Shown here piece after piece: positions 18,390-35,330 of a stretch of DNA of 64,000 bases. Numbering within the stretch: the first letter of the stretch is position 1; every line of letters starts with the position of its first letter. A program made the translations under genes and the position numbers. Below the pieces are notes generated by a model. That model saw only the letters and a program-made list of their open reading frames with translations, searched no databases and was not told where the DNA came from. The stretch lies in NCBI RefSeq assembly GCF_002939985.1, contig NZ_MDFM01000024.1, positions 1-64,000 on the forward strand, written 5' to 3'. Source of the stretch: Xanthomonas hortorum pv. cynarae (GTDB lineage: Bacteria > Pseudomonadota > Gammaproteobacteria > Xanthomonadales > Xanthomonadaceae).

Positions 18390-19067
18390 ATGCACATTCA
18401 CGACTGGCCCACCGACGAACGCCCGCGCGAGAAACTTCTGGCGCGCGGGGCGACTGCCTTATCCGATGCCGAGCTGCTGGCGATCTTTGTCGGCTCCGGT
18501 CTGCGCGGCCAGGACGCCGTGCGCACTGCGCGCGATCTGCTGCTTCGCCACGGCCCGCTGCGCGTGCTGCTGGATCGCCCGGCCCCGGCCCTGGCGCGCC
18601 TGCCCGGCCTTGGGCCCGCCTCGGCCTGCAAGCTCAACGCGGCACTGGAACTGGCACACCGTCACCTGATGAGCGAGCTGGAGCGCGGCGAAGCGCTCAG
18701 CGACCCACCCAGCGTCGGCCGCTATTTTTCGCAGCGACTACGTGCAAAGGCGTACGAGGTGTTCGCGGTGCTGTACCTGGATACCAAACATCACGCCATC
18801 GCCTTCGAGGAATTGTTCACCGGCACGCTGGATGGCGCCGACATCCATACGCGCGAAGTGGTGCGACGGGCGCTACTGCACAATGCAGCGGCCGTGATCG
18901 TCGGGCACAACCATCCGTCCGGCAACCCGGAGCCCTCCGAGGCCGACCGCGCGGTTACCAAACGTTTGCTGGAGGCACTGGATCTGGTGGAGATCCGCCT
19001 GCTCGACCACTTCGTGATCGGCGACGGCCGCCCGGTGTCGCTGGCCGAGCGCGGCTGGCTGGAATGA
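18390..19067 (+). CDS. radC: RadC/YeeS family JAB1-MPN protein
   Basis: The 225-residue protein has an N-terminal helix-hairpin-helix region ([21 protein letters not shown]) and a C-terminal JAMM metalloprotease-like domain with the zinc motif [14 protein letters not shown]. RadC was once tied to DNA repair, but its biochemical function remains unsettled. The ATG at 18390 ([16 protein letters not shown]) gives the usual family N terminus; upstream in-frame starts do not. It is divergent from coaBC and ahead of argS. Confidence 0.92.
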
Positions 19068-19119
19068 CAACGCGGCGGTGACCTGAACCGTCGGCCGGAC
19101 CCGGGCGCGCGCGGTCGGG

Positions 19120-19125
19120 TAAAAT
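19120..19125 (+). promoter_or_regulatory. possible -10 element of argS
   Basis: TAAAAT lies 28 bases ahead of the argS start. No good -35 match is visible at the expected distance, so this is tentative. Confidence 0.35.
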
Positions 19126-19149
19126 CGGTGGTTTCGTTCCAAGCAGATC

Positions 19150-19157
19150 TCACGTGA
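19150..19157. promoter_or_regulatory. parS-like palindrome overlapping the argS start
   Basis: TCACGTGA is the perfect core of the ParB site consensus TGTTTCACGTGAAACA. With flanks (19146-19161) 11 of 16 bases agree. It is within about 9 kb of parAB, a usual distance for parS, but it also coincides with the GTG start of argS, so chance is possible. Confidence 0.3.
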
Positions 19158-20842
19158 AAGCCCAACTCCGCGCACTGATCGGCCAAGGTATTGAAGCCTT
19201 GCGCGCCAACGGCACCCTGCCTGCCGACACCCTGCCGCCGGATTTTGTGGTCGAGCGACCCAAGACGCGCGAGCACGGCGACTTCGCCACCAATGCCGCA
19301 ATGCTGCTGGCCAAGCCTGCACGCTCCAATCCGCGCGCACTGGCGCAGGCGCTGGTGGCCGCATTGCCGGCCAGCGACGAGGTGGCCAAGGTGGAGATCG
19401 CTGGGCCGGGGTTCATCAACTTCCATCTGACGCCCTCCGCCTACCAGCGCGAAGTGGCGCATGTCATCAAGCAAGGCCCCGACTACGGTCGCGGGCTGGC
19501 CGGCAATGGCCGCTCGGTGGGCGTGGAATACGTCTCGGCCAACCCGACCGGCCCGCTGCATGTCGGCCACGGCCGCGCGGCGGCGATCGGCGACAGCCTG
19601 GCGCGCGTGCTCGATGCCAACGGCTGGAACGTCAAGCGCGAGTTCTATTACAACGATGCCGGCGTGCAGATCGAAAACCTGGCCTTGTCGGTGCAGGCGC
19701 GCGCGCAAGGGCTCACCCCCGACAGCGACGGCTGGCCGGAGAACGGCTACCGCGGCGACTACATCGCCGATGTCGCCAACGCCTACCTGGCCGGCGATAC
19801 CGTCGACCTGGAAGGCCATCTGGTCACCGGTACCCAGGACCCGGCCGATATCGAGTCGATCCGCCGCTTCGCGGTGGCCTATCTGCGTAACGAGCAGAAC
19901 CACGACCTGGCCGCGTTCCGCGTCGATTTCGATATCTATTTCCTGGAAAGCTCGCTGTACAAGGACGGCAAGGTCGAAGAGGCCGTGCAGAAGCTGATCG
20001 CTTCCGGCCACACCTACGAGGAAGGCGGCGCGTTGTGGTTGAAGTCCACCGACTTCGGCGACGACAAGGACCGGGTGATGCGCAAGTCCGACGGCACCTA
20101 CACCTACTTCGTGCCGGACGTGGCCTATCACCTGACCAAGTGGCAGCGCGGCTACGAGCGCGCGATCACCGAGCTCGGCGCTGACCACCACGGCTCGCTG
20201 ACGCGCGTGCGCGCCGGCCTGCAGGCCTTGGAACTGGGCATCCCGCAGGGCTGGCCGGAATACGTGCTGCACCAGATGGTCACGGTGATGCGCGGCGGCG
20301 AAGAGGTGAAGCTGTCCAAGCGTGCCGGCAGCTACGTCACCCTGCGCGATCTGATCGAAGAAACCAGCGCCGATGCGGTGCGCTGGTTTCTGATCGCGCG
20401 CAAGCCCGATTCGCAGCTCACCTTCGACATCGACCTGGCCCGTCAGCAGAGCAACGACAACCCGGTGTTTTATGTGCAGTACGCGCATGCCCGCGTGTGC
20501 AGCGTGCTGCGTCAGGCGCTGGAAAAAGGCTACAAGTACGAGCAGGCACATGGGTTGGCCGAGCTGGCGCGTCTGGATGACGAGCATTCGCTCAACGTCA
20601 TGGTCGAGCTGTCGCGCTATGCGGAAGTGGTGGAAATCGCCGGCCAGACACTGGAGCCGTATCAGATTGCGCAGTACCTGCGTGAATTGGCGCACGCCTT
20701 CCACACGTGGTATCACAACACCAAACTGCTGGTGGACGATGCCGCAGAGCGCGACGCCAAACTCACCCTCGCCGTCGCCACGCAACAGGTGCTCGCCAAC
20801 GGCCTGGAACTGCTCGGCGTCAGCGCCCCAGAAAAGATGTAA
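19154..20842 (+). CDS. argS: arginyl-tRNA synthetase
   Basis: This class I synthetase charges tRNA-Arg. The 562-residue product starts at GTG ([16 protein letters not shown]). It has an N-terminal Add-1-like domain and the signature [16 protein letters not shown], with HVGH at 136-139. [12 protein letters not shown] stands in the KMSKS position and a C-terminal anticodon-binding domain contains [20 protein letters not shown]. Length fits the short bacterial branch. A SPOR-domain gene follows 45 bases after the stop, past a small hairpin. Confidence 0.96.
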
Positions 20843-20844
20843 GT

Positions 20845-20860
20845 CGGGCCGCACGGCCCG
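20845..20860. terminator. short GC hairpin after argS
   Basis: CGGGCCG and CGGCCCG form a seven-base stem with almost no loop. There is no T run, so it may weaken rather than end transcription into the SPOR gene. Confidence 0.4.
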
Positions 20861-20887
20861 CAACGACGTGATTCGGAGAAGTGGTAG

Positions 20888-21787
20888 ATGGCAGCACGAC
20901 GCGGTAAGAGTCAGGCGCGACGCAACACCAGCAATGGCACCCCCGTTTGGGTGTGGTTGGTGGCGGGCGCCGCGATTGCGGCAGTGATTTTCCTGGCAGC
21001 GCCCAACCTGTTCAAGAAGGACGGCGACGGCTTCCTGCGTGTGGGCCCGCGCGCCAATCCCGATGCGCAGCCAGAGCCGGTGGCAGATGCCGACGTGGAT
21101 ACGCCGGCCGACCTGCCCAAGCCCAGCGCACAACCGCCCAAGCCGCAAGCCAAACCCGGCGATGCGCAGACCCAGTACGACTTCTACACCTTGCTGCCCG
21201 GCAAGGAAGTGCAGATGTCCGATGCCGAACTGGCGGCCAGTGCGCGCGCCGAGGAAGCCGCTCGTGCGCGTGCGGCACTGGAAGGCAAGCCGGTTGCGCC
21301 CGCACCAGGTGCAGCAGCACGTGTTGCTGCAGCCACGCCGGCCGCCAGCGTGCCGGTGCCGTTGAACGAAACCGCCGCCAGTGTGCCCAAGCCGTTGGCA
21401 GAAACTGCGCCTGCGCGTCCGGCGGCCACACCGGCGCCGGCCAGCACCGCAGCGCTCACCACGCCGGCTGCCGCCGCACCTGCAACTGCAGCGCCCAAAC
21501 CGGCTGCGACGACCGCAGCGGCAACGACGGCGGCTGCACCTGCAATGACAGACAACACCCGCTACATCCTGCAGGCCGGCTCGTTCGGCGCCTCCGGCGA
21601 TGCCGAATCGACCAAGGCCAAGCTGGCGATGATGGGCCTGGCCGCACGCGTGGAATCGGCCGAAATCAGCGGCAAAACCGTCTACCGCGTGCGCATGGGG
21701 CCGTATGGCAGCGCCGGCGAACTGGCCGAAGCCAAGCAGAAACTGACCGGCAGCGGATTGCCTGCCATCGCCATCAAGGCGCAGTAG
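20888..21787 (+). CDS. SPOR-domain inner-membrane protein
   Basis: The 299-residue protein has a short basic cytoplasmic start (MAARRGKSQARRNTSNG), one membrane segment at about 19-40, and a long proline/alanine-rich periplasmic linker. The C-terminal SPOR domain begins near residue 225 (RYILQAGSFGASGDAESTKAKL) and ends VYRVRMGPYGSAGELAEAKQ. SPOR domains bind denuded glycan strands at the division septum, so a FtsN/DedD-like septal role is likely. It follows argS, a common arrangement. Confidence 0.88.
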   Translation: MAARRGKSQARRNTSNGTPVWVWLVAGAAIAAVIFLAAPNLFKKDGDGFLRVGPRANPDAQPEPVADADVDTPADLPKPSAQPPKPQAKPGDAQTQYDFYTLLPGKEVQMSDAELAASARAEEAARARAALEGKPVAPAPGAAARVAAATPAASVPVPLNETAASVPKPLAETAPARPAATPAPASTAALTTPAAAAPATAAPKPAATTAAATTAAAPAMTDNTRYILQAGSFGASGDAESTKAKLAMMGLAARVESAEISGKTVYRVRMGPYGSAGELAEAKQKLTGSGLPAIAIKAQ

Positions 21788-21925
21788 CGACAGTGTCGGA
21801 TCGCGCTTGCGGCCTGTTGCTACGACGTCGTTGCGCGCCAGCCGCTCGGTGCGGCCGGGCTGCACGCACGCCGTGCAGCGGCACGCGCATCCGGCACGGT
21901 CGCCACACCTGATTGCTTCGCCTGA

Positions 21926-22705
<780 letters not shown>

Positions 22706-22834
22706 CGATGGCCTGCAACGCCAATGCCTCGGTCGCGCCGTGATCCGATGATGTGTTGATTGGCGCGTGCGCAGATCGCGCAGCATCCAAGCTCGGTGCG
22801 GCGCTGGAACTGGCGCACTGCCAGAGATGACGAC

Positions 22835-22859
22835 AACGCCGCGCATTGCGCGGCGTTTT
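22835..22859. terminator. bidirectional terminator between SDR and acyltransferase genes
   Basis: AACGCCGCGC (22835-22844) and GCGCGGCGTT (22848-22857) form a perfect ten-base stem with a three-base loop. T residues follow on the plus strand and their mirror on the minus strand. Confidence 0.75.
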
Positions 22860-22870
22860 GCGATGCCCGG

Positions 22871-23998
22871 TCAGGCGCGATCAGCGGCAGCCAACGGCCG
22901 CGCGCCTGGCCGCAGCATCTTGTCGCGCAGCTGCAGGAACGGGCGCTCCACCGCGTAGTGCAAGACCGCACCGCCCAGCACTGCCATCAGGCCATACACC
23001 GCAAATGCCAGCACGCCACGTCCCTCCAGCGCCGGGCCGAACCAGCCCTGGGTGAGATGGAACACGGCCTTGTGGGTCAGATACAGGCTGTAGGAAATGC
23101 CCGCCAGCCATGCGGCGCCTGGCACGCGCAGGCCGCCAAGCACTCCGCGGGTGGCGGTGCCGGCCAGCACCAGCAAGGCGAGCCCCAACGACAACACCGG
23201 CCAGCCCAGCGCATTGCCGATCAGGCCGGTGCGCTCGCGAAACAGCCACAACGCCAGCGCCAGAATCGCCATGCCGGCACACAGCACAGCGTTGCCGCGC
23301 TGCTGCAGCCGTTGCCACAGCGTGGGGCGGAAGATCTTGAGCACCGCCAGGACGACACCGGCCAGCAGACCGTCCAGACGGTTCCAGGTCGGGTAATAGA
23401 TGTCTTCGATAAACCAGTTGCGCTGCAGGCCGGCACCGGCGCTGTCCAGGGCGGTGTTGTGCCACCAGATGCCGGCACGCAGCGCGATGCCTGCAACCAC
23501 CACCAGCACGTAGAGCACGACAAAGCGCGCGGCCGAGGGCCGACGCATCAACAGCGTCGCCAGCAACGGAAACACCAGATAGAAATGTTCTTCCACGCAC
23601 AGCGACCAGGCGTGCGAGAACGCGGCATCGCGGCCGTAATCGACGAACAGGTTCAGGGTAAAGCTGACGAACATCCACCACGGTGCCAACCCGGGCGACT
23701 CACGAAACTCCGGCCACGCCATGTAGATCGCCAGCACCACCAGAAACGCCGGCAGGATGCGGAACGCGCGGCGCAGATAGAACGCCTTGAAGTCCAGGCC
23801 TTGCCCGTGCGCCAGCGGCCGCAGCACCTGCGTACCGATCAGAAAACCGCTCAACACGAAGAACAGGTCCACGCCCATCCAGCCGTAGCGGGACAACCAC
23901 GCCCAGTCCGGCCCCAGGCCGCCGACCACGAAGGAATGGAACAGCATCACCCAGACGATGGCGATGCCACGCAGCAGATCAAGGGCGGGATAGCGCAT
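22871..23998 (-). CDS. membrane acyltransferase, OafA/YrhL type (acyltransferase 3)
   Basis: This 375-residue protein has about ten membrane helices. It starts MRYPALDLLRGIAIVWVMLFHS, which includes the family's conserved R-G and membrane histidine, and has GWMGVDLFFVLSGFLIG and HAWSLCVEEHFYLVFP. Such enzymes transfer acetyl or longer acyl groups to sugars of LPS, antibiotics or glycolipids. It is the third minus-strand gene after the NRPS and GT1 genes, with a 208-base gap from GT1. It may acylate their product, but separate transcription is possible. No clear ribosome site was seen. Confidence 0.88.
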   Translation of the reverse strand: MRYPALDLLRGIAIVWVMLFHSFVVGGLGPDWAWLSRYGWMGVDLFFVLSGFLIGTQVLRPLAHGQGLDFKAFYLRRAFRILPAFLVVLAIYMAWPEFRESPGLAPWWMFVSFTLNLFVDYGRDAAFSHAWSLCVEEHFYLVFPLLATLLMRRPSAARFVVLYVLVVVAGIALRAGIWWHNTALDSAGAGLQRNWFIEDIYYPTWNRLDGLLAGVVLAVLKIFRPTLWQRLQQRGNAVLCAGMAILALALWLFRERTGLIGNALGWPVLSLGLALLVLAGTATRGVLGGLRVPGAAWLAGISYSLYLTHKAVFHLTQGWFGPALEGRGVLAFAVYGLMAVLGGAVLHYAVERPFLQLRDKMLRPGARPLAAADRA

Positions 23999-24206
23999 GC
24001 GGGCGATGCAAGGCGAAGGAGCCCGATTGTGCCGCATCCCGCCGATGCAGCGATGCCGGCATCGACGTTGGCCGCAGCAACACGCCCGGCACCTCACCCG
24101 TGCCGCACTCAGAGACCTGCGGTAATGCCCAGCCGCCTTGCCGCCGCCAATCCGCTGTCGACGCTGTGTTTCCCCCACAGCGTCATCCATCACACGACGG
24201 TCTGTA

Positions 24207-25544
24207 TTACGCGACGGCCTGCTGCTCGATCCGCTGGGTCGGCGCCACCGACACCGCCGGTTGCAGCAATCCCCATGCTTCCAGCTGATCCACCGCCCGG
24301 CTGATCCCGTCCTCCTCACGGATGCGCTGACCCAGCACGCGTGCTGCTGCACGCATGCTCGGCGCGCTGGCCTGGCGGATGGCATCGGCCAAGGTTTCCG
24401 GCTGCAATCCGACCCGTGCGAGCGCCGGGGGCGCGACGCCGCGCTGGGCCAGGCAATGCGCCCAGAACGGTTGGTCGTAGCCGAACGGTAGGACCACCGA
24501 CGGAATCCCCGCAGCCAGCGCCGCACCGGTCGTGCCGGCACCGCCGTGATGCACCGCGACCGACACCCGCGGGAACAGCCAATCGTGTGGTGCCTGTTCC
24601 AACTGGAAGAAGCGCTCCGCATCGTCGGACGCATCTTCCCCGGCCGCCAGCCCGCCCCAGCCGCTGGCCAGCAACGCGCGTTGACCGGTCAGACGCACCG
24701 CCGCCTTGACGATGGCGGTGAGCTGCGCCGCATCGATGCTGATCATGCTGCCGAAGCCGACATACAGCGCCGGCGGGCCGGCCTGCAAAAACGCTTCCAG
24801 CGCGGCCGGCGGCTGCCATTGGGGCTGCGGCAACTGCCAGAAACCGGCGACCTGGGCTCTGTCCGGCCAGTCCGGCGGACGTGGGCACAGATGCTCGCTA
24901 TAGCCATACACCACGCGCTGCGCGCTGCGATCGGGACCACTCCACGGATACGCCGGCAGCCCCAATGCCGGGCGCACGATGCCGTTGAGCGCCGGGCGCA
25001 TCAGCTGCCAGGCGGCAAAGCGCACCGCGTGATGCAGTGCCACACTCACCAGCCCGGGCAGACGCACAGTGGGCATCACCATCAACGGCACATGGCGCGA
25101 GGCGTTCAGCGGCTGCAATTGCGTGAATACCACCGGCAGGCCGTAGGCCTGGCCCAGGCTATGCGCCAGCAGGCTGGCGCTGCCGACGCCGAGAATCAGG
25201 CCGGCATCGGCACAGGCCGCGCGGCCCTGCTCGGCCCAGTCGCGCGCCCAGTCCATCAGTTGTGCGCGCAAGGTGCCCCAGATGCCGCGCCAGCCACCGC
25301 GCATCTCGGCGACATTCGGATGGCCTTGCAACAGCTTCTGGTGGTCGCCGCTGAGCGGAAAGAACTCCAGCCCATTGGCGCGGATCAGGGATTCGAAGTT
25401 GGCGCTGGTCAGCACCCGCACCGGATAGCCGCGCTCCTGCAGGCCGCGGCCCAGCGCAATGATCGGGCGCACATCGCCATGCGTGCCCAGGGTGGCGATC
25501 AGCACCGGGCGGTGACGTGCCGGCGTCTGCAGTGACTCAGGCAT
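24207..25544 (-). CDS. GT1-family glycosyltransferase (macrolide/sterol glucosyltransferase type)
   Basis: The 445-residue protein opens PVLIATLGTHGDVRPIIALG, the GT28/GT1 N-terminal pattern, and has LYVGFGSM plus the C-terminal nucleotide-sugar loop HHGGAGTTGAALAAGIPSV near residue 331. Relatives glucosylate sterols, macrolides, rhamnolipid precursors or other small hydrophobic acceptors. It overlaps the NRPS stop by eight bases, so the two are translated together. The acceptor is therefore probably the NRPS product, though that is inference. Confidence 0.87.
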   Translation of the reverse strand: MPESLQTPARHRPVLIATLGTHGDVRPIIALGRGLQERGYPVRVLTSANFESLIRANGLEFFPLSGDHQKLLQGHPNVAEMRGGWRGIWGTLRAQLMDWARDWAEQGRAACADAGLILGVGSASLLAHSLGQAYGLPVVFTQLQPLNASRHVPLMVMPTVRLPGLVSVALHHAVRFAAWQLMRPALNGIVRPALGLPAYPWSGPDRSAQRVVYGYSEHLCPRPPDWPDRAQVAGFWQLPQPQWQPPAALEAFLQAGPPALYVGFGSMISIDAAQLTAIVKAAVRLTGQRALLASGWGGLAAGEDASDDAERFFQLEQAPHDWLFPRVSVAVHHGGAGTTGAALAAGIPSVVLPFGYDQPFWAHCLAQRGVAPPALARVGLQPETLADAIRQASAPSMRAAARVLGQRIREEDGISRAVDQLEAWGLLQPAVSVAPTQRIEQQAVA

Positions 25545-28500
25545 ATTCGGCCACCCCGTCGCTGGCGGTGGCGGTGGCGGTGCTGCCATCGCGTTGTGCG
25601 GCTTTCGCAGTGGCAGCATGCAGTAAGGCGCTGAGCGTGGCCGAATGCGTGGACGACAGCATCGAATGATGATCGCTGTCCAAAACGTGCAGGTGCAGAT
25701 TGCGCACGTATGGTTGCCAGGCCTGCGGCCGGTAGTCCAGCCAGACCGCATCGCCGCCGCCGAAGCTCATGCGCACACGTGCTTCGACGAACAGCACGTC
25801 CTGCTGCAGCGGCTTGGGCCGATGGCGTCGCGACAGTTGCAGGTGATGCTGAGTCAGCCCGCCCAGATCATCCAGCAGGGTTGGGTGTTGTGTGAGCAAC
25901 TGGCGCAACGCGGGCAAGTCGTTTAGCAAGTAGTGATCGCATAGCAGGCTGGCCAGTTCGGCGAGCGTGGTCGGTCTCGTTTTGTCATCTGCCACGTCCA
26001 GGCCCAAGGCATGCATTGAGGCATGCACCATCTCGGATTCCGGCAATGCTGCGGCTTGTTCCAGATATGGGTAACTGTCGAGCATCGCCAGCAACTCGAC
26101 TTCTTCGCCAAGCGCATGCAACTCGGCGGTGATGGCATGGGCGATCAAGCCGCCCAGCGACCAGCCGATCAATCGATACGGCCCGTGCGGCTGCACGCTG
26201 CGCAGACGGGCCAGATAATCGCGCGCGATCGCCTCGATGCTTTCCGGGCGATGCTGCGGGTCGCTCAATGCCGGCGACTGCAATGCATACACCGGCCACT
26301 GCGGATCGAGCTGACCGAGCAAGGTGAGATACGACCAGCCCAGACCGACCACCGGATGGATGCAGAACAGCGGCGTGGTGCCCGGCGTACCCGCACGCAA
26401 CGGCAACAGCACGCCGAGCGGATCGTTCGGGGTCTGTGCGCTGCGTTTGATCACCTCGGCCAGGCCGGCAATCGTCGGCGCATGGAACAGCGTGCCCAGC
26501 GGCAGTTCGACGCCGAACATCTGCGGGAAACGCGCGGCCATTTCTGCCGCGCGCAGCGAGTCGCCGCCGAGCTCGAAGAAGTTGTCTTCCACCCCCACCA
26601 CTTCAATGCCCAGCACGTCCTGCAACATCGCTGCCAGTTGGTGTTCGAGCGCATCGCGTGGCGCCACATGCGCGCGCTGCGGCAATGCGCCCGGTGACGG
26701 CAATGCGCGGCGATCCAGCTTGCCGTTGGGTGTCAGCGGCAGTGCCTCCAGCGGCATCCACAGCGTGGGAATCATCGACGCAGGCAAGCGTTGCTGCAGA
26801 TGCGCGCGCAGCAGCTCGGTCGACGGCATGGTGCCGTGCTTACCCACCACATAGGCCAGCAACTGCAACGCGTTGTTGTCGCCATCGCTATGGCCAACCA
26901 CCACTGCCTGGGCCACCTGCGAATGCAGCAGCAAGGCGTTTTCGATTTCGGCCGGCTCCACGCGATGGCCGCGGATCTTCAATTGCGCGTCCGCACGGCC
27001 GATGAACTCCAGCATGCCGTCGCGACGCTGACGCACGCGGTCGCCGGTGCGGTACATGCTGCTGCCGTCGTCGGCAAACGGGTCGCGCACAAAGCGCTCG
27101 CTGGTCAGCTGGCGCTTGCCGCGATAGCCCTTGGCCACGCCCGCGCCGCCGATATACAGCTCACCGATCGCACCGGTGGGCAGCGGCTGCCGCTGCGCAT
27201 CCAGCACGTAGACGCGCGTATTGAGCAGCGGCCTGCCAATGGGTGGGGCTGCGGCGTCGGTCAGCTGCAACGGCATGATGGTCGACCAGATGGTGGTTTC
27301 GGTTGGCCCGTACAACTGGGTCAGGCGCCCCACCCGGCTCAGCAACTGCGTCGCCAACTCCGGCACCAGGGCCTCACCGCCCACCAGCGCGTGGATACGG
27401 TCCAGTGCCAGATCTTCATTGGCCAGCAGGATGCGCCACAACGACGGGGTGGCCTGCACCACGCTGATCTGCTCGTGTGCGATCAGGCGCGACAGGCTGC
27501 GTGGATCGTGGGTGATGCCGGCCGGTGCGATGACCACGCGTGCGCCCACCAGCAGCGGCAGGTACAACTCCAGCCCGGCGATGTCGAAGGTGATGGTGGT
27601 GACCGCCAGCACGCGGTCGCGCGGCCGCAATGCCAGTTCATGCTCCATCGCATGCAGGAAATTGAAGAGATTGCGATGGCTGATTTCCACGCCCTTGGGC
27701 GCGCCGGTCGAGCCGGAGGTGTACAGCACGTAGGCGGTGCCATCCGGCGTGGCGAGCGGTGCTATCGCCGCCGGCAACACCGCCGGGCGTGGATCCAGCC
27801 ACACCATGCCACCGAGCAGATAGCGCTCGCACAACGCCGGCTCGCAGACCAGCGCGATGGCGCCGGAATCGTTGAGCATCTGCCGATTGCGTGCGGCCGG
27901 GCTTTCCGGGTCCAGTGGCAGATACGCCGCCCCACTCCACATCACTGCCAGCAAGGCCACCAGCAACTGTTCGCTGCGCGGCAACGCGATGGCGACCACA
28001 TCGCCGGGGCCCACGCCGTCGGCCACCCACTGCGCCGCAATGCGCGAGGCGAGCTCGCACAGCGTGGCGTAATCCAGCGTGCGGTTGTCGTATTGCACCA
28101 CCACCGCCGCCGGCATCAGCTCGGCGCGCTGCAACATGCCGTGCAACAGCGTGCTCGGCTCCGGCAGTGGCGCTGCGGTGTCGTTCCAGGTGTGCAGCAG
28201 TCGCTGACGCTCGTCATGACCCAGCACATCGATCAGGCCGAGTGCGCATTCCGGATTTGCCAGTACCGCATCGGCCAGGTGGGTCAGGCGGCGGCAATGT
28301 TCTGCCAGCTCGTCGCTGTCGTACATTGCCGGGTTGGCATCCAGATCGAAGCGCAACGCGGCGCCATCGCCACGCTCGTAGCAGAAGATGGTCAGATCGT
28401 CGACGCGACCATTGGAAAGATTATGCGGGATCGCAGACGCCTCGCCAAAACGCAGCGCACAATCGAAGGGTTCGATGTTGACCGCCAGCCGCGCGACGTT

Positions 28501-29535
28501 CTGATCGATGCCGAACATACCCAGATCACGGCGCAGATCCTCATAGCGATATTGCTGATGGCGCAACGCATGCCTGACCACCGACGAGACCTGTGTAAAC
28601 AAGGTATGGAGCGGTTGCTGCGGATCCATCTTCAGACGCAGCGAGATCAGATTGGCAACCATGCCAGCGGTTTTACGGTAACGCGCGTTGATGCGACCGG
28701 TCACCGGCATTGCCAACACCAGATCTTCTGCGCCGGTGCAACGGTAGTAATAGGCCGCGATCAGCGAAATCAGCATCTGCGGCAAGCTGGCACCGTATTG
28801 CTTGCCCAGCGCGTGCAGACGCACCACTTGCTGTGGCGAAAAATACCCGGTGCTGCGCAAAAGACCGGTAGACGGATGGCTGCCGAGCCGCGACAAAGTC
28901 GTCGGCGGTGGCAGATCGGCCAGCTGCTGCATCCAGTATGCGCGATCGCGCTGAAGACGATCGGAGTCGAGGTACTGCTGCTCCCACTCCATCAAGGACA
29001 GCGCACTGCCGAATTGCGCAGGTTCCGGCTCGACACCTTCTGCGTATGCGTTATACAGCGCCGCCATGCGCTGCATCATGATCGATCCGCTATAACCATC
29101 CACCACCAGATGGTTCGCGCAATGCACCCACATATGGTGATCTTCGCCAAGACGGAACACCGCGCAATGCCATAACGGCCCGTCCTGCAGATTGTCCGGC
29201 TTGCGGACTTTCTCGTCGAGCCAGTGCTCGGCGGCGTCGCGCGGGAAGGGATCTTCGCTGACGTTGAAGTACGGAATGGCAGCCGTGTAATCGGGCCGGA
29301 TCACCTGGCCGGGCACGCCATCGTGTTCGACGATGCACAGCCGCAGCGTGTCGAACTCGCGCGTCAGCTGCATGCTGGCGCGCAACAACAGCTGCGGATC
29401 GAGCGGGCCGAACATCTCCAATGCTTCGGACAACATCAAGGTGTTGTAGGTGTGCAACTTGCTGACGACCCACAGGCCGCGTTGCGCTTTGGTCAGGGGA
29501 ATCACGGCAGAGACTTCAGCGTGCATTGCGTGCAT
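25537..29535 (-). CDS. single-module nonribosomal peptide synthetase, C-A-T-TE, predicted to activate glycine
   Basis: The 1332-residue enzyme has an EntF-like condensation domain (about 10-440), with NHLVVDG near residue 140. The adenylation domain (about 470-945) has YTSGSTGAPKG near 605, FDIAGLE near 651, QLYGPTETTIW and NGKLDRR near 936. A carrier domain with FELGGDSLRAAE has its phosphopantetheine serine near 992. The thioesterase has GWSLGG near 1125. The ten specificity residues, aligned by eye to GrsA, read D-I-L-Q-L-G-L-I-W-K, the code recalled for glycine. It overlaps the GT1 gene. Genomes may list it as an EntF-like serine activator; the code disagrees. Confidence 0.9.
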   Translation of the reverse strand: MHAMHAEVSAVIPLTKAQRGLWVVSKLHTYNTLMLSEALEMFGPLDPQLLLRASMQLTREFDTLRLCIVEHDGVPGQVIRPDYTAAIPYFNVSEDPFPRDAAEHWLDEKVRKPDNLQDGPLWHCAVFRLGEDHHMWVHCANHLVVDGYSGSIMMQRMAALYNAYAEGVEPEPAQFGSALSLMEWEQQYLDSDRLQRDRAYWMQQLADLPPPTTLSRLGSHPSTGLLRSTGYFSPQQVVRLHALGKQYGASLPQMLISLIAAYYYRCTGAEDLVLAMPVTGRINARYRKTAGMVANLISLRLKMDPQQPLHTLFTQVSSVVRHALRHQQYRYEDLRRDLGMFGIDQNVARLAVNIEPFDCALRFGEASAIPHNLSNGRVDDLTIFCYERGDGAALRFDLDANPAMYDSDELAEHCRRLTHLADAVLANPECALGLIDVLGHDERQRLLHTWNDTAAPLPEPSTLLHGMLQRAELMPAAVVVQYDNRTLDYATLCELASRIAAQWVADGVGPGDVVAIALPRSEQLLVALLAVMWSGAAYLPLDPESPAARNRQMLNDSGAIALVCEPALCERYLLGGMVWLDPRPAVLPAAIAPLATPDGTAYVLYTSGSTGAPKGVEISHRNLFNFLHAMEHELALRPRDRVLAVTTITFDIAGLELYLPLLVGARVVIAPAGITHDPRSLSRLIAHEQISVVQATPSLWRILLANEDLALDRIHALVGGEALVPELATQLLSRVGRLTQLYGPTETTIWSTIMPLQLTDAAAPPIGRPLLNTRVYVLDAQRQPLPTGAIGELYIGGAGVAKGYRGKRQLTSERFVRDPFADDGSSMYRTGDRVRQRRDGMLEFIGRADAQLKIRGHRVEPAEIENALLLHSQVAQAVVVGHSDGDNNALQLLAYVVGKHGTMPSTELLRAHLQQRLPASMIPTLWMPLEALPLTPNGKLDRRALPSPGALPQRAHVAPRDALEHQLAAMLQDVLGIEVVGVEDNFFELGGDSLRAAEMAARFPQMFGVELPLGTLFHAPTIAGLAEVIKRSAQTPNDPLGVLLPLRAGTPGTTPLFCIHPVVGLGWSYLTLLGQLDPQWPVYALQSPALSDPQHRPESIEAIARDYLARLRSVQPHGPYRLIGWSLGGLIAHAITAELHALGEEVELLAMLDSYPYLEQAAALPESEMVHASMHALGLDVADDKTRPTTLAELASLLCDHYLLNDLPALRQLLTQHPTLLDDLGGLTQHHLQLSRRHRPKPLQQDVLFVEARVRMSFGGGDAVWLDYRPQAWQPYVRNLHLHVLDSDHHSMLSSTHSATLSALLHAATAKAAQRDGSTATATASDGVAEYA

Positions 29536-34322: not shown

Positions 34323-34520
34323 ACCTTCCTCGTCGTGATTGCTTGCGCCGCAGCGTTGTCTTGTATGACACCACATCCGTGCCCTCGTGGTGCCGATCAG
34401 AGCTACGACGAAGCGTGCGCAGTACCGGATCACCGAGCGCTTCATACAGCCCAGCGGCAACAAGGCGGATGTCGCCATCCGCCTTTGTTGTGTGCACAAC
34501 GCTGTTTTTCTATCGCCGAC

Positions 34521-35330
34521 TCAAAAGCGGACTTCGGCGCCGAAGCTCAGCACTTCGGCACGATTGATGGTGATGTCTTCGTAGTCGTCGTAGTACTCGT
34601 CGGCGTACAGGTAGTTCGTGTAGAGCGCGCTCAGACTGAAATGCTTGCCGATATCCACACCGAGGCCCGCACCCAGATATGCGCCGTAGACACGCTCGGT
34701 GTAGTCCTCGCCTTTTGCCTCGCCTCCCCAATAGCCCATGCGTACCAGAGCGAACACTGGGGTGTCGCCGAAGTTGAAGCGCGCCGTTCCACCGATGCTG
34801 CCGAAGTCCACTGTCGGAATGACGACAAAGCCATCCGCATCCTTCGAACCGTCAACCTTTCCGGTGGCCACTTCAATGCCGACCAGCGTGACCGGACCAG
34901 CACGCCAGCGGTAACCGACGTTGAAGCCCGCCATGTCCTGCTTGTTGCCCTCGAACACCTTGGCTTCGCCGCCCTGCGCGCCCAAGAACATGCCGCTCTT
35001 GAGGCGCTGTTCTTCTTCGCGCGGCGCAGGCGCAACGTAGGCGGGCGCCGGTGCAGGCGGTGCCGCCGCTGCGGGCATCTGCGCCGTCACCGTGGTGAAG
35101 CCGCCGGTCTCGCCGGCTGCGCTGTCTTGCACTGCCGTCTGTCCTGCGGCGGTACCGTCTTGCGACGGGCCCGACGGTGGCGCTGCCGGTGCGGTGGCCC
35201 CCTGGGTGCCAGCCTGCTGTTTTTGCTGTTGCCGATAATTGTCCCAGCCGCGCGACAACGACTGCGCGGCCGCGTCGGAAACGCAGCCCAGCGCCGTGCA
35301 GGCCAACAGCCATGTTGCGGTCCTTTTCAT
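34521..35330 (-). CDS. secreted outer-membrane beta-barrel protein, OmpA/OmpX-like
   Basis: The 269-residue product has a signal peptide (MKRTATWLLACTALGCVSDAAAQS) and a Q/P/A-rich linker to about residue 110. An eight-strand-like barrel follows, with alternating strands (GFNVGYRWRAGPVTLVGIEVATG, TPVFALVRMGYWGGEAKG), ending EVRF with the terminal phenylalanine expected for BamA-assembled barrels. Acidic tyrosine turns (YADEYYDDYED) occur late. The ATG at 35330 gives the signal peptide; longer frames do not. Specific function is unknown. Confidence 0.8.
   Translation of the reverse strand: MKRTATWLLACTALGCVSDAAAQSLSRGWDNYRQQQKQQAGTQGATAPAAPPSGPSQDGTAAGQTAVQDSAAGETGGFTTVTAQMPAAAAPPAPAPAYVAPAPREEEQRLKSGMFLGAQGGEAKVFEGNKQDMAGFNVGYRWRAGPVTLVGIEVATGKVDGSKDADGFVVIPTVDFGSIGGTARFNFGDTPVFALVRMGYWGGEAKGEDYTERVYGAYLGAGLGVDIGKHFSLSALYTNYLYADEYYDDYEDITINRAEVLSFGAEVRF

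What the first reader, a model, noticed from the sequence alone, without database searches (positions are those of the whole stretch)
22871..29535. Three-gene NRPS, glycosyltransferase and acyltransferase cluster with glycine code
A single-module NRPS (C-A-T-TE) is followed by a GT1 gene that overlaps its stop by eight bases and then an OafA-type membrane acyltransferase. The A-domain residues aligned by eye to GrsA read D-I-L-Q-L-G-L-I-W-K, the code recalled for glycine. If correct, the cluster could make a glycosylated, acylated glycine conjugate. A short coupled cluster with no transporter or loading gene is an unusual natural-product layout. The product is not one I recognise.
Basis: partly seen in the sequence, partly recalled or inferred. 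Interest (0 to 1): 0.75.

Follow-up and report, generated by a model that had tools for sequence, protein, structure and literature searches.

The report
Two-gene glycine glycolipid synthesis locus
A plant-associated Xanthomonas carries a two-gene assembly line that probably joins a fatty acid to glycine and adds a sugar; such loci have been described before, but in this strain the parts thought to handle the fatty acid look swapped in from an unknown relative.

Summary
The genes are as described: a C-A-T-TE synthetase (25537-29535, -), a GT1 gene overlapping its stop by 8 nt (24207-25544), and an OafA-type acyltransferase (22871-23998). The pocket reads DILQLGLIWK.

The unit looks like two genes, not three. 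NRPS and GT are neighbours in 60 of the 78 best named loci, Acidobacteria and alphaproteobacteria included. The acyltransferase lies there only in Xanthomonas, after a 208-nt gap, and is kept in both of the 35 genus genomes that lack NRPS and GT.

This kind is in print: Royer et al. 2013 describe 'short NRPS' genes overlapping a GT by 4 or 8 bp in X. albilineans, relate them to ABO_1784/1783 of Alcanivorax borkumensis, and predict glycine + beta-hydroxy acid + sugar. I add the link to the Alcanivorax glycine-glucolipid.

Beyond that paper's main text: (1) purifying selection is as strong in species with one PPTase gene as with two, against the suggestion that function was lost there; (2) the window's NRPS is a mosaic: most of its C domain and the TE stretch between catalytic Asp and His are 81-83% identical to X. 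hortorum, the A-T core 97%. Altered acyl specificity is inferred, not shown.

The parts
25537..29535 (-). single-module NRPS, C-A(Gly)-T-TE, 1332 aa (possible start 29526)
28195..29508 (-). condensation domain (Pfam 10-447), probably starter type (acyl donor)
28403..29302 (-). divergent block in C domain, codons 78-378: 82.7% nt identity to X. hortorum L006 against 97.0% in the core
26719..28128 (-). adenylation domain (residues 470-939), pocket DILQLGLIWK
26449..26640 (-). carrier (T/PCP) domain (966-1029), GGDSL
25636..26373 (-). thioesterase domain (1055-1300)
25684..26074 (-). divergent block in TE domain, codons 1154-1284, between catalytic Asp (1153) and His (1289): 80.8% nt identity
24207..25544 (-). 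GT1 glycosyltransferase, 445 aa, start overlaps NRPS end by 8 nt
22871..23998 (-). OafA-type membrane acyltransferase, 375 aa; neighbour, probably not part of the unit

Best explanation
NRPS and GT form a two-gene glycine-glycolipid locus. The single PPTase of the genome loads the T domain (inferred). The A domain activates glycine (inferred from the pocket). The N-terminal C domain takes a 3-hydroxyacyl thioester and acylates glycine (inferred from domain place and nearest solved C domains). The TE releases the N-acylglycine, and the overlapping GT glycosylates the hydroxyl of the acyl chain (inferred from its nearest solved relatives and from the Alcanivorax product). The acyltransferase downstream is an independent resident gene. 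In this strain most of the C domain and the TE segment between catalytic Asp and His probably came by recombination from an unsampled lineage (supported by synonymous divergence), which may alter the lipid tail (inferred).
For: Domains and pocket. NRPS-GT adjacency: 24 of 24 Xanthomonas and 36 of 54 other named loci. Both genes absent together in G003 and G010, the only 2 of 35 genus genomes without them; G003 keeps a 222-nt GT scrap between speA and the acyltransferase. Prior description of X. albilineans XALc_0364/0365 and A. borkumensis ABO_1784/1783/1782. The A. borkumensis lipid is four 3-hydroxy acids with glycine on the terminal acid by amide and glucose at the other end; ABO_1783 is described as RhlB-like (passages); Gly-bearing aglycones occur and no glycine-free form was found (passages). 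GT's best solved relatives are sterol 3-beta-glucosyltransferases, E 5.6e-45. Purifying selection, equal in single- and two-PPTase species. L078 has the order NRPS-GT-PPTase, as reported for A. borkumensis. Mosaic: dS 0.55 and 0.52 in the two blocks against 0.13 in A and 0.09 in T; against X. hortorum five of 63 windows of 300 nt fall below 0.88 and four of these are the blocks.
Against: No product or enzyme assay. ABO_1784 itself was not compared (not reached). That the code means Gly is recalled; the one solved Gly-activating domain I aligned (LgrA module 2, Gly by recall) has, by my reading of the alignment, a different pocket. Royer et al. doubted function in species without XaPPTase; G000 has one PF01648 match, and all 5 broken NRPS copies lie among the 21 NRPS-bearing genomes with one match, 0 among the 12 with two (Fisher p = 0.13). 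In the paper the 8-bp overlap belongs to the copy with an unknown signature, the Gly copy overlaps by 4 bp. Eighteen of 54 non-Xanthomonas loci show no adjacent GT hit, among them Marinomonas NRPSs with the same pocket; 3 of the 18 end within 0.8 kb of the NRPS. In the class-wide draw only 5 of 368 other genomes pass E 1e-190, so the kind is patchy.
Confidence: 0.75

Rival explanations
1. Three-gene operon: the acyltransferase O-acylates the sugar of the glycoside, so the product is glycosylated and acylated.
For: Same strand and downstream in Xanthomonas: 23 of 24 named loci show a hit, L015 ending before it; it is itself under purifying selection, dN/dS 0.14-0.42 against 19 copies.
Against: No hit in the DNA held for 54 non-Xanthomonas loci. 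Kept without NRPS-GT in G003 and G010; no match at E <= 1e-60 in G020 and G033 that have the GT. Gap 208 nt here, roughly 0.1 to 3.4 kb elsewhere. [Pseudomonas] boreopolis L067 has NRPS-GT between the same flanking genes without it.
Confidence: 0.15
2. The locus is decaying and silent in this species because no dedicated PPTase is present (suggestion of Royer et al. for X. campestris and X. axonopodis).
For: One PF01648 match in G000; broken copies in 5 of 21 NRPS-bearing genomes with one match, 0 of 12 with two.
Against: Core dN/dS median 0.102 within 14 single-PPTase copies (91 pairs) and 0.109 within 8 two-PPTase copies (28 pairs) (loci assigned to genomes by matching coordinates). Catalytic residues intact, and the divergent blocks keep frame and motifs. 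The single PPTase is 198 aa, longer than a typical AcpS (recall), so a broad-range enzyme is plausible.
Confidence: 0.15
3. The A domain activates another small amino acid (Ala, Ser) and the product is not a glycine lipid.
For: A. borkumensis also makes alanine congeners (passages); related loci with other pockets exist, e.g. DVWHFSLVDK, DIFQLTLVWK.
Against: Pocket identical in 23 of 24 named Xanthomonas loci, the exception being the broken L023; Royer et al. call the signature of XALc_0364 Gly.
Confidence: 0.1
4. The divergent C and TE blocks reflect fast local evolution rather than recombination.
For: C and TE blocks are the more variable parts in other species pairs too; a control pair (L013/L021) also shows a diverged stretch at codons 1-182 (0.874).
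Against: Synonymous divergence is raised about four-fold in the blocks, with sharp edges; X. hortorum/LMG 31884 are one stretch throughout; bromi, populi and melonis share a C class but fall in three A-tree clades.
Confidence: 0.08

Closest known systems
Short NRPS-glycosyltransferase loci of Xanthomonas albilineans (XALc_0364/0365, XALc_1145/1144; Royer et al. 2013, PMC3849588)
   Same: One module C-A-PCP-TE, GT overlapping the 3' end by 4 or 8 bp, Gly signature in XALc_0364, similar genes stated for X. campestris pv. campestris and X. axonopodis pv. citri
   Different: One PPTase-superfamily match in this genome; mosaic C and TE domains in this copy; 8-bp overlap with a Gly-type pocket (there the Gly copy has 4 bp)
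Alcanivorax borkumensis glycine-glucolipid genes (ABO_1784 NRPS, ABO_1783 GT, ABO_1782 PPTase)
   Same: Gene order NRPS-GT as reported; product known to hold glycine amide, 3-hydroxy acids and glucose
   Different: PPTase not linked here; product here unknown; sequences not compared; the NRPS's role in that lipid is my inference, since the passages seen say the pathway is not elucidated
Serrawettin W1 synthetase type unimodular C-A-T-TE NRPS (recalled)
   Same: One module that N-acylates an amino acid with a 3-hydroxy acid
   Different: Serine instead of glycine, no coupled GT (recall, not tested)

Membership tests
Short NRPS-GT loci (Royer et al. 2013) | single module C-A-PCP-TE | tested here: met
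Short NRPS-GT loci (Royer et al. 2013) | GT gene overlapping the NRPS 3' end by 4 or 8 bp | tested here: met
   8 bp
Short NRPS-GT loci (Royer et al. 2013) | starter-type C domain | tested here: inconclusive
   best solved matches 7c1k, 6n8e, 4jn3, 5ja1 are starter-type by recall; no C-domain class tree made
Short NRPS-GT loci (Royer et al. 2013) | Gly signature (in XALc_0364; XALc_1145 has another) | tested here: inconclusive
   DILQLGLIWK; that this string means Gly is recalled, and the paper's table with its signature was not read
Short NRPS-GT loci (Royer et al. 2013) | XaPPTase in the genome (held by the paper to matter for function, not for membership) | tested here: not met
   one PF01648 match in G000, a 198-aa protein
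Alcanivorax glycine-glucolipid pathway | product with glycine amide, 3-hydroxyacyl chain and glucose | not testable with these tools
   no chemistry
Alcanivorax glycine-glucolipid pathway | linked PPTase after the GT | tested here: not met
   acyltransferase, then ydfG on the other strand, follow the GT; the linked order is seen in L078
Alcanivorax glycine-glucolipid pathway | orthology to ABO_1784/1783 | not tested
Three-gene NRPS-GT-acyltransferase cluster | acyltransferase co-inherited with NRPS-GT | tested here: not met

The most novel reading that the evidence does not exclude
In Xanthomonas the glycine-activating A-T core and the GT are kept while the acyl-handling parts, the C domain and the TE segment between catalytic Asp and His, are exchanged between lineages as cassettes. 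A family of glycine glycolipids with different tails would thus be made by natural domain swapping in one minimal synthetase, and the window's strain carries a C/TE pair from an unsampled lineage and makes a lipid unlike that of X. hortorum.
Probability: 0.35. Interest if true: 0.6.

Novelty: new member of a known kind. Interest (0 to 1): 0.4.

Why it matters
It ties a gene pair whose NRPS is intact in 28 of 35 genus genomes examined, and which is found also in Dyella, Lysobacter, Acidobacteria and acetic acid bacteria, to the glycine-glucolipid class known from an oil-degrading marine bacterium, so a lipid can be looked for in many cultured species. The mosaic gives a natural comparison of which parts of a minimal NRPS can be exchanged in evolution without breaking it.

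Tried and rejected
A 1351-aa minus-strand ORF at 18791-22846 looked like a further gene but is antisense to argS, ftsN and ydfG. Promoter scan: one hit against a mean of 1.2 in shuffles, no use; CACAAT upstream of the acyltransferase ATG is suggestive of its own promoter but untested. A paper search for the string DILQLGLIW found 0 papers. A class-wide search for the NRPS (369 genomes, 6 past E 1e-190, the window's own among them) gave no copy that I could name as Alcanivorax; GT adjacency was not checked for the other five. The link of broken copies with PPTase number was not significant (Fisher p = 0.13). Passages of PMC8776678, PMC6669457 and PMC12299268 were seen and added nothing used here. 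No structure was predicted.

Rows dropped: NRPS copies L023, L028, L039, GT L016 and L018, and AT L013, L020, L023, L024 were left out as broken, cut by a contig end or short, and L015 has no AT; the trees use the 22 remaining NRPS rows, window included. The first AU run warned of too few replicates and was repeated with 10000. The segmentation used identity levels that I chose, different ones for the bromi and populi pairs. One search kept the best 80 of 491 relatives, so counts on named loci are of that capped list (78 distinct).

Full report
OBSERVATION. All three genes are where the finding says. The NRPS (25537-29535, -) is 1332 aa with C, A, T and TE domains. The GT (24207-25544) starts 8 nt inside the NRPS end. 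The acyltransferase has an Acyl_transf_3 domain; matches in relatives begin at its first residue when the start is put at 23998, 208 nt after the GT stop, so it is not coupled by overlap. The pocket is DILQLGLIWK. That this string means glycine is recalled; a search of the paper library for DILQLGLIW found nothing, and the Gly-activating (by recall) LgrA module-2 domain has another pocket by my reading of the alignment. The T-domain Ser and the TE triad are present; the C motif is NHLVVDG with the first His replaced; the other Xanthomonas loci have SH there.

SETTING. The window lies in an unnamed Xanthomonas genome (G000, 5.06 Mb; genus inferred from its nearest named relatives). Of the two close named loci compared at length, X. 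hortorum L006 has a median nt identity of 97% over 63 windows of 300 nt. The locus sits between speA and ydfG. It is the only full NRPS found in the genome with this query; the other four hits are A-like stretches at 27-31% identity.

THE UNIT IS TWO GENES. The genome scan kept the best 80 of 491 relatives, 78 distinct loci. Of these all 24 Xanthomonas loci and 36 of 54 others have a GT homologue next to the NRPS on the same strand: [Pseudomonas] boreopolis, Lysobacter, Luteimonas, Dyella, Rhodanobacter, Frateuria, Acidobacteria, Nitrospirillum, Zavarzinia, Asaia, Gluconobacter and others. Of the 18 without, 3 end within 0.8 kb of the NRPS. An acyltransferase hit is found in 23 of 24 Xanthomonas loci (L015 ends before it) and in 0 of 54 others; 34 of the 36 GT-bearing others hold more than 2.5 kb after the NRPS end. 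In 35 genus genomes NRPS and GT are present together in 33 (NRPS broken in 5) and absent together in G003 and G010; both of these keep the acyltransferase between speA and ydfG, and G003 also keeps a 222-nt scrap of the GT. G020 and G033 have the GT but no acyltransferase match at E <= 1e-60.

WHAT IT MAKES. Royer et al. 2013 (PMC3849588; section 7 read whole, further passages) describe this gene pair in X. albilineans with the same domain order and overlaps of 4 bp (the Gly copy) and 8 bp (a copy of unknown signature), name similar genes ABO_1784, ABO_1783 and the contiguous PPTase ABO_1782 in A. borkumensis and similar short NRPS genes in two other Xanthomonas species, and predict glycine linked to a beta-hydroxy acid and a glycosyl residue. 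Its main text holds no word beginning with glycolipid, glucolipid or surfactant. A 2015 paper (PMC4584326, one passage) repeats the hypothesis of glycosylated amino acids. The A. borkumensis glycine-glucolipid is four 3-hydroxy acids with glycine amide-bound to the terminal acid and glucose at the other end; ABO_1783 is described there as RhlB-like and the pathway as not elucidated (PMC10710537, passages). Glycine-bearing aglycones occur, no glycine-free form was found, and those authors speculate that glycine is joined first and glucose last (PMC10684412, passages). Joining these, the Xanthomonas pair most likely makes a glycosylated N-(3-hydroxyacyl)glycine. The GT's nearest solved relatives are sterol 3-beta-glucosyltransferases, which fits a lipid acceptor; the sugar is unknown.

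IS IT FUNCTIONAL? Royer et al. suggest function may be kept only where XaPPTase is kept. G000 and 21 other genus genomes have one PF01648 match, 13 have two. The window NRPS against 21 intact copies has dN/dS 0.11-0.18, the GT 0.08-0.22 (22 copies), the acyltransferase 0.14-0.42 (19 copies). Within 14 single-PPTase copies the core has a median dN/dS of 0.102 (91 pairs), within 8 two-PPTase copies 0.109 (28 pairs) (loci assigned to genomes by matching coordinates, pairs not independent). Against this: broken NRPS copies occur in 5 of 21 NRPS-bearing single-PPTase genomes (G008, G017, G027, G033, G034) and 0 of 12 with two (Fisher p = 0.13; species not independent).

A MOSAIC GENE. Against X. 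hortorum the NRPS falls into five stretches: codons 1-78 at 95.3%, 78-378 at 82.7%, 378-1154 at 97.0%, 1154-1284 at 80.8%, 1285-1332 at 94.9% nt identity. Of three control pairs under the same settings, X. hortorum/LMG 31884 is one stretch at 97.3%, L026/L009 has one 12-codon low stretch, and L013/L021 has a low stretch at codons 1-182 (87.4%), so exchange near the start of the gene may be common. In protein the core is 99% identical and the two blocks 80% and 78%. Synonymous divergence is 0.55 and 0.52 in the blocks against 0.13 (A) and 0.09 (T), which argues for import rather than selection. Against X. hortorum 5 of 63 windows of 300 nt fall under 0.88, four of them in these blocks; against L017 8 of 64 do, four in these blocks and four at 34.4-35.9 kb. 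The TE block fills the stretch between catalytic Asp 1153 and His 1289. The best match among the other genus genomes is 84% (C block) and 82% (TE block), 35 genomes searched each time with the window's own among them, so the donor is unsampled. C domains have moved elsewhere as well: X. populi, X. bromi and X. melonis share a C class (support 100) but belong to three different clades in the A tree. The C-block data reject the A tree (delta lnL 415, AU p 8e-5), the TE-block data reject it (delta lnL 38, AU p 7e-4), and the A data reject both block trees; but the A data also reject the tree of the neighbouring T-TE1 stretch (delta lnL 87), so these tests are not specific to C and TE and partly reflect small trees. 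The end of the C block recurs near codons 357, 378 and 380 in three comparisons (with identity levels chosen for each pair). That the swaps change acyl choice is an inference from which parts were swapped.

LIMITS. Novelty statements rest on the searches.

Noticed in passing
L052 12017-17667; L069 13301-14886; L030 13432-14391: Exporter genes lie beside NRPS-GT in other lineages: an open frame holding GT and HlyD domains followed by an AcrB-type pump (Nitrospirillum), an ABC transporter pair (Asaia), an HlyD protein on the other strand (Dyella).
   Followed up: partly
L049 14609-16093: A 494-aa protein with a partial Condensation match and a weak AATase match follows the GT in Granulicella; it might add further acyl units.
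   Followed up: no
L056-L062, L082: Marinomonas and Terasakiispira have the same pocket DILQLGLIWK in a C-A-T-TE-like NRPS without a GT hit nearby; L062 ends 0.7 kb after the NRPS.
   Followed up: no
L053, L054, L066, L078: PPTase-like motifs just upstream of the NRPS (L053, L054, L066) or after the GT (L078), 4 of 6 motif hits in the loci scanned; the L078 one confirmed by Pfam.
   Followed up: partly
L015, L016, L018: X. populi, X. bromi and X. melonis share a distinct C-domain class (YMSHLVMDGY) on different backgrounds.
   Followed up: yes
window 18791-22846 (-): 1351-aa open frame antisense to argS, ftsN and ydfG; high-GC artefact.
   Followed up: yes
window 34401-35300: This stretch is 67-69% identical to L017 but not under 88% against X. 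hortorum L006; unexplained.
   Followed up: no
G009:C121:18052-19350: The GT copy of one genus genome (coordinates match X. bromi L016) reads through two TAG codons although its NRPS is open.
   Followed up: no
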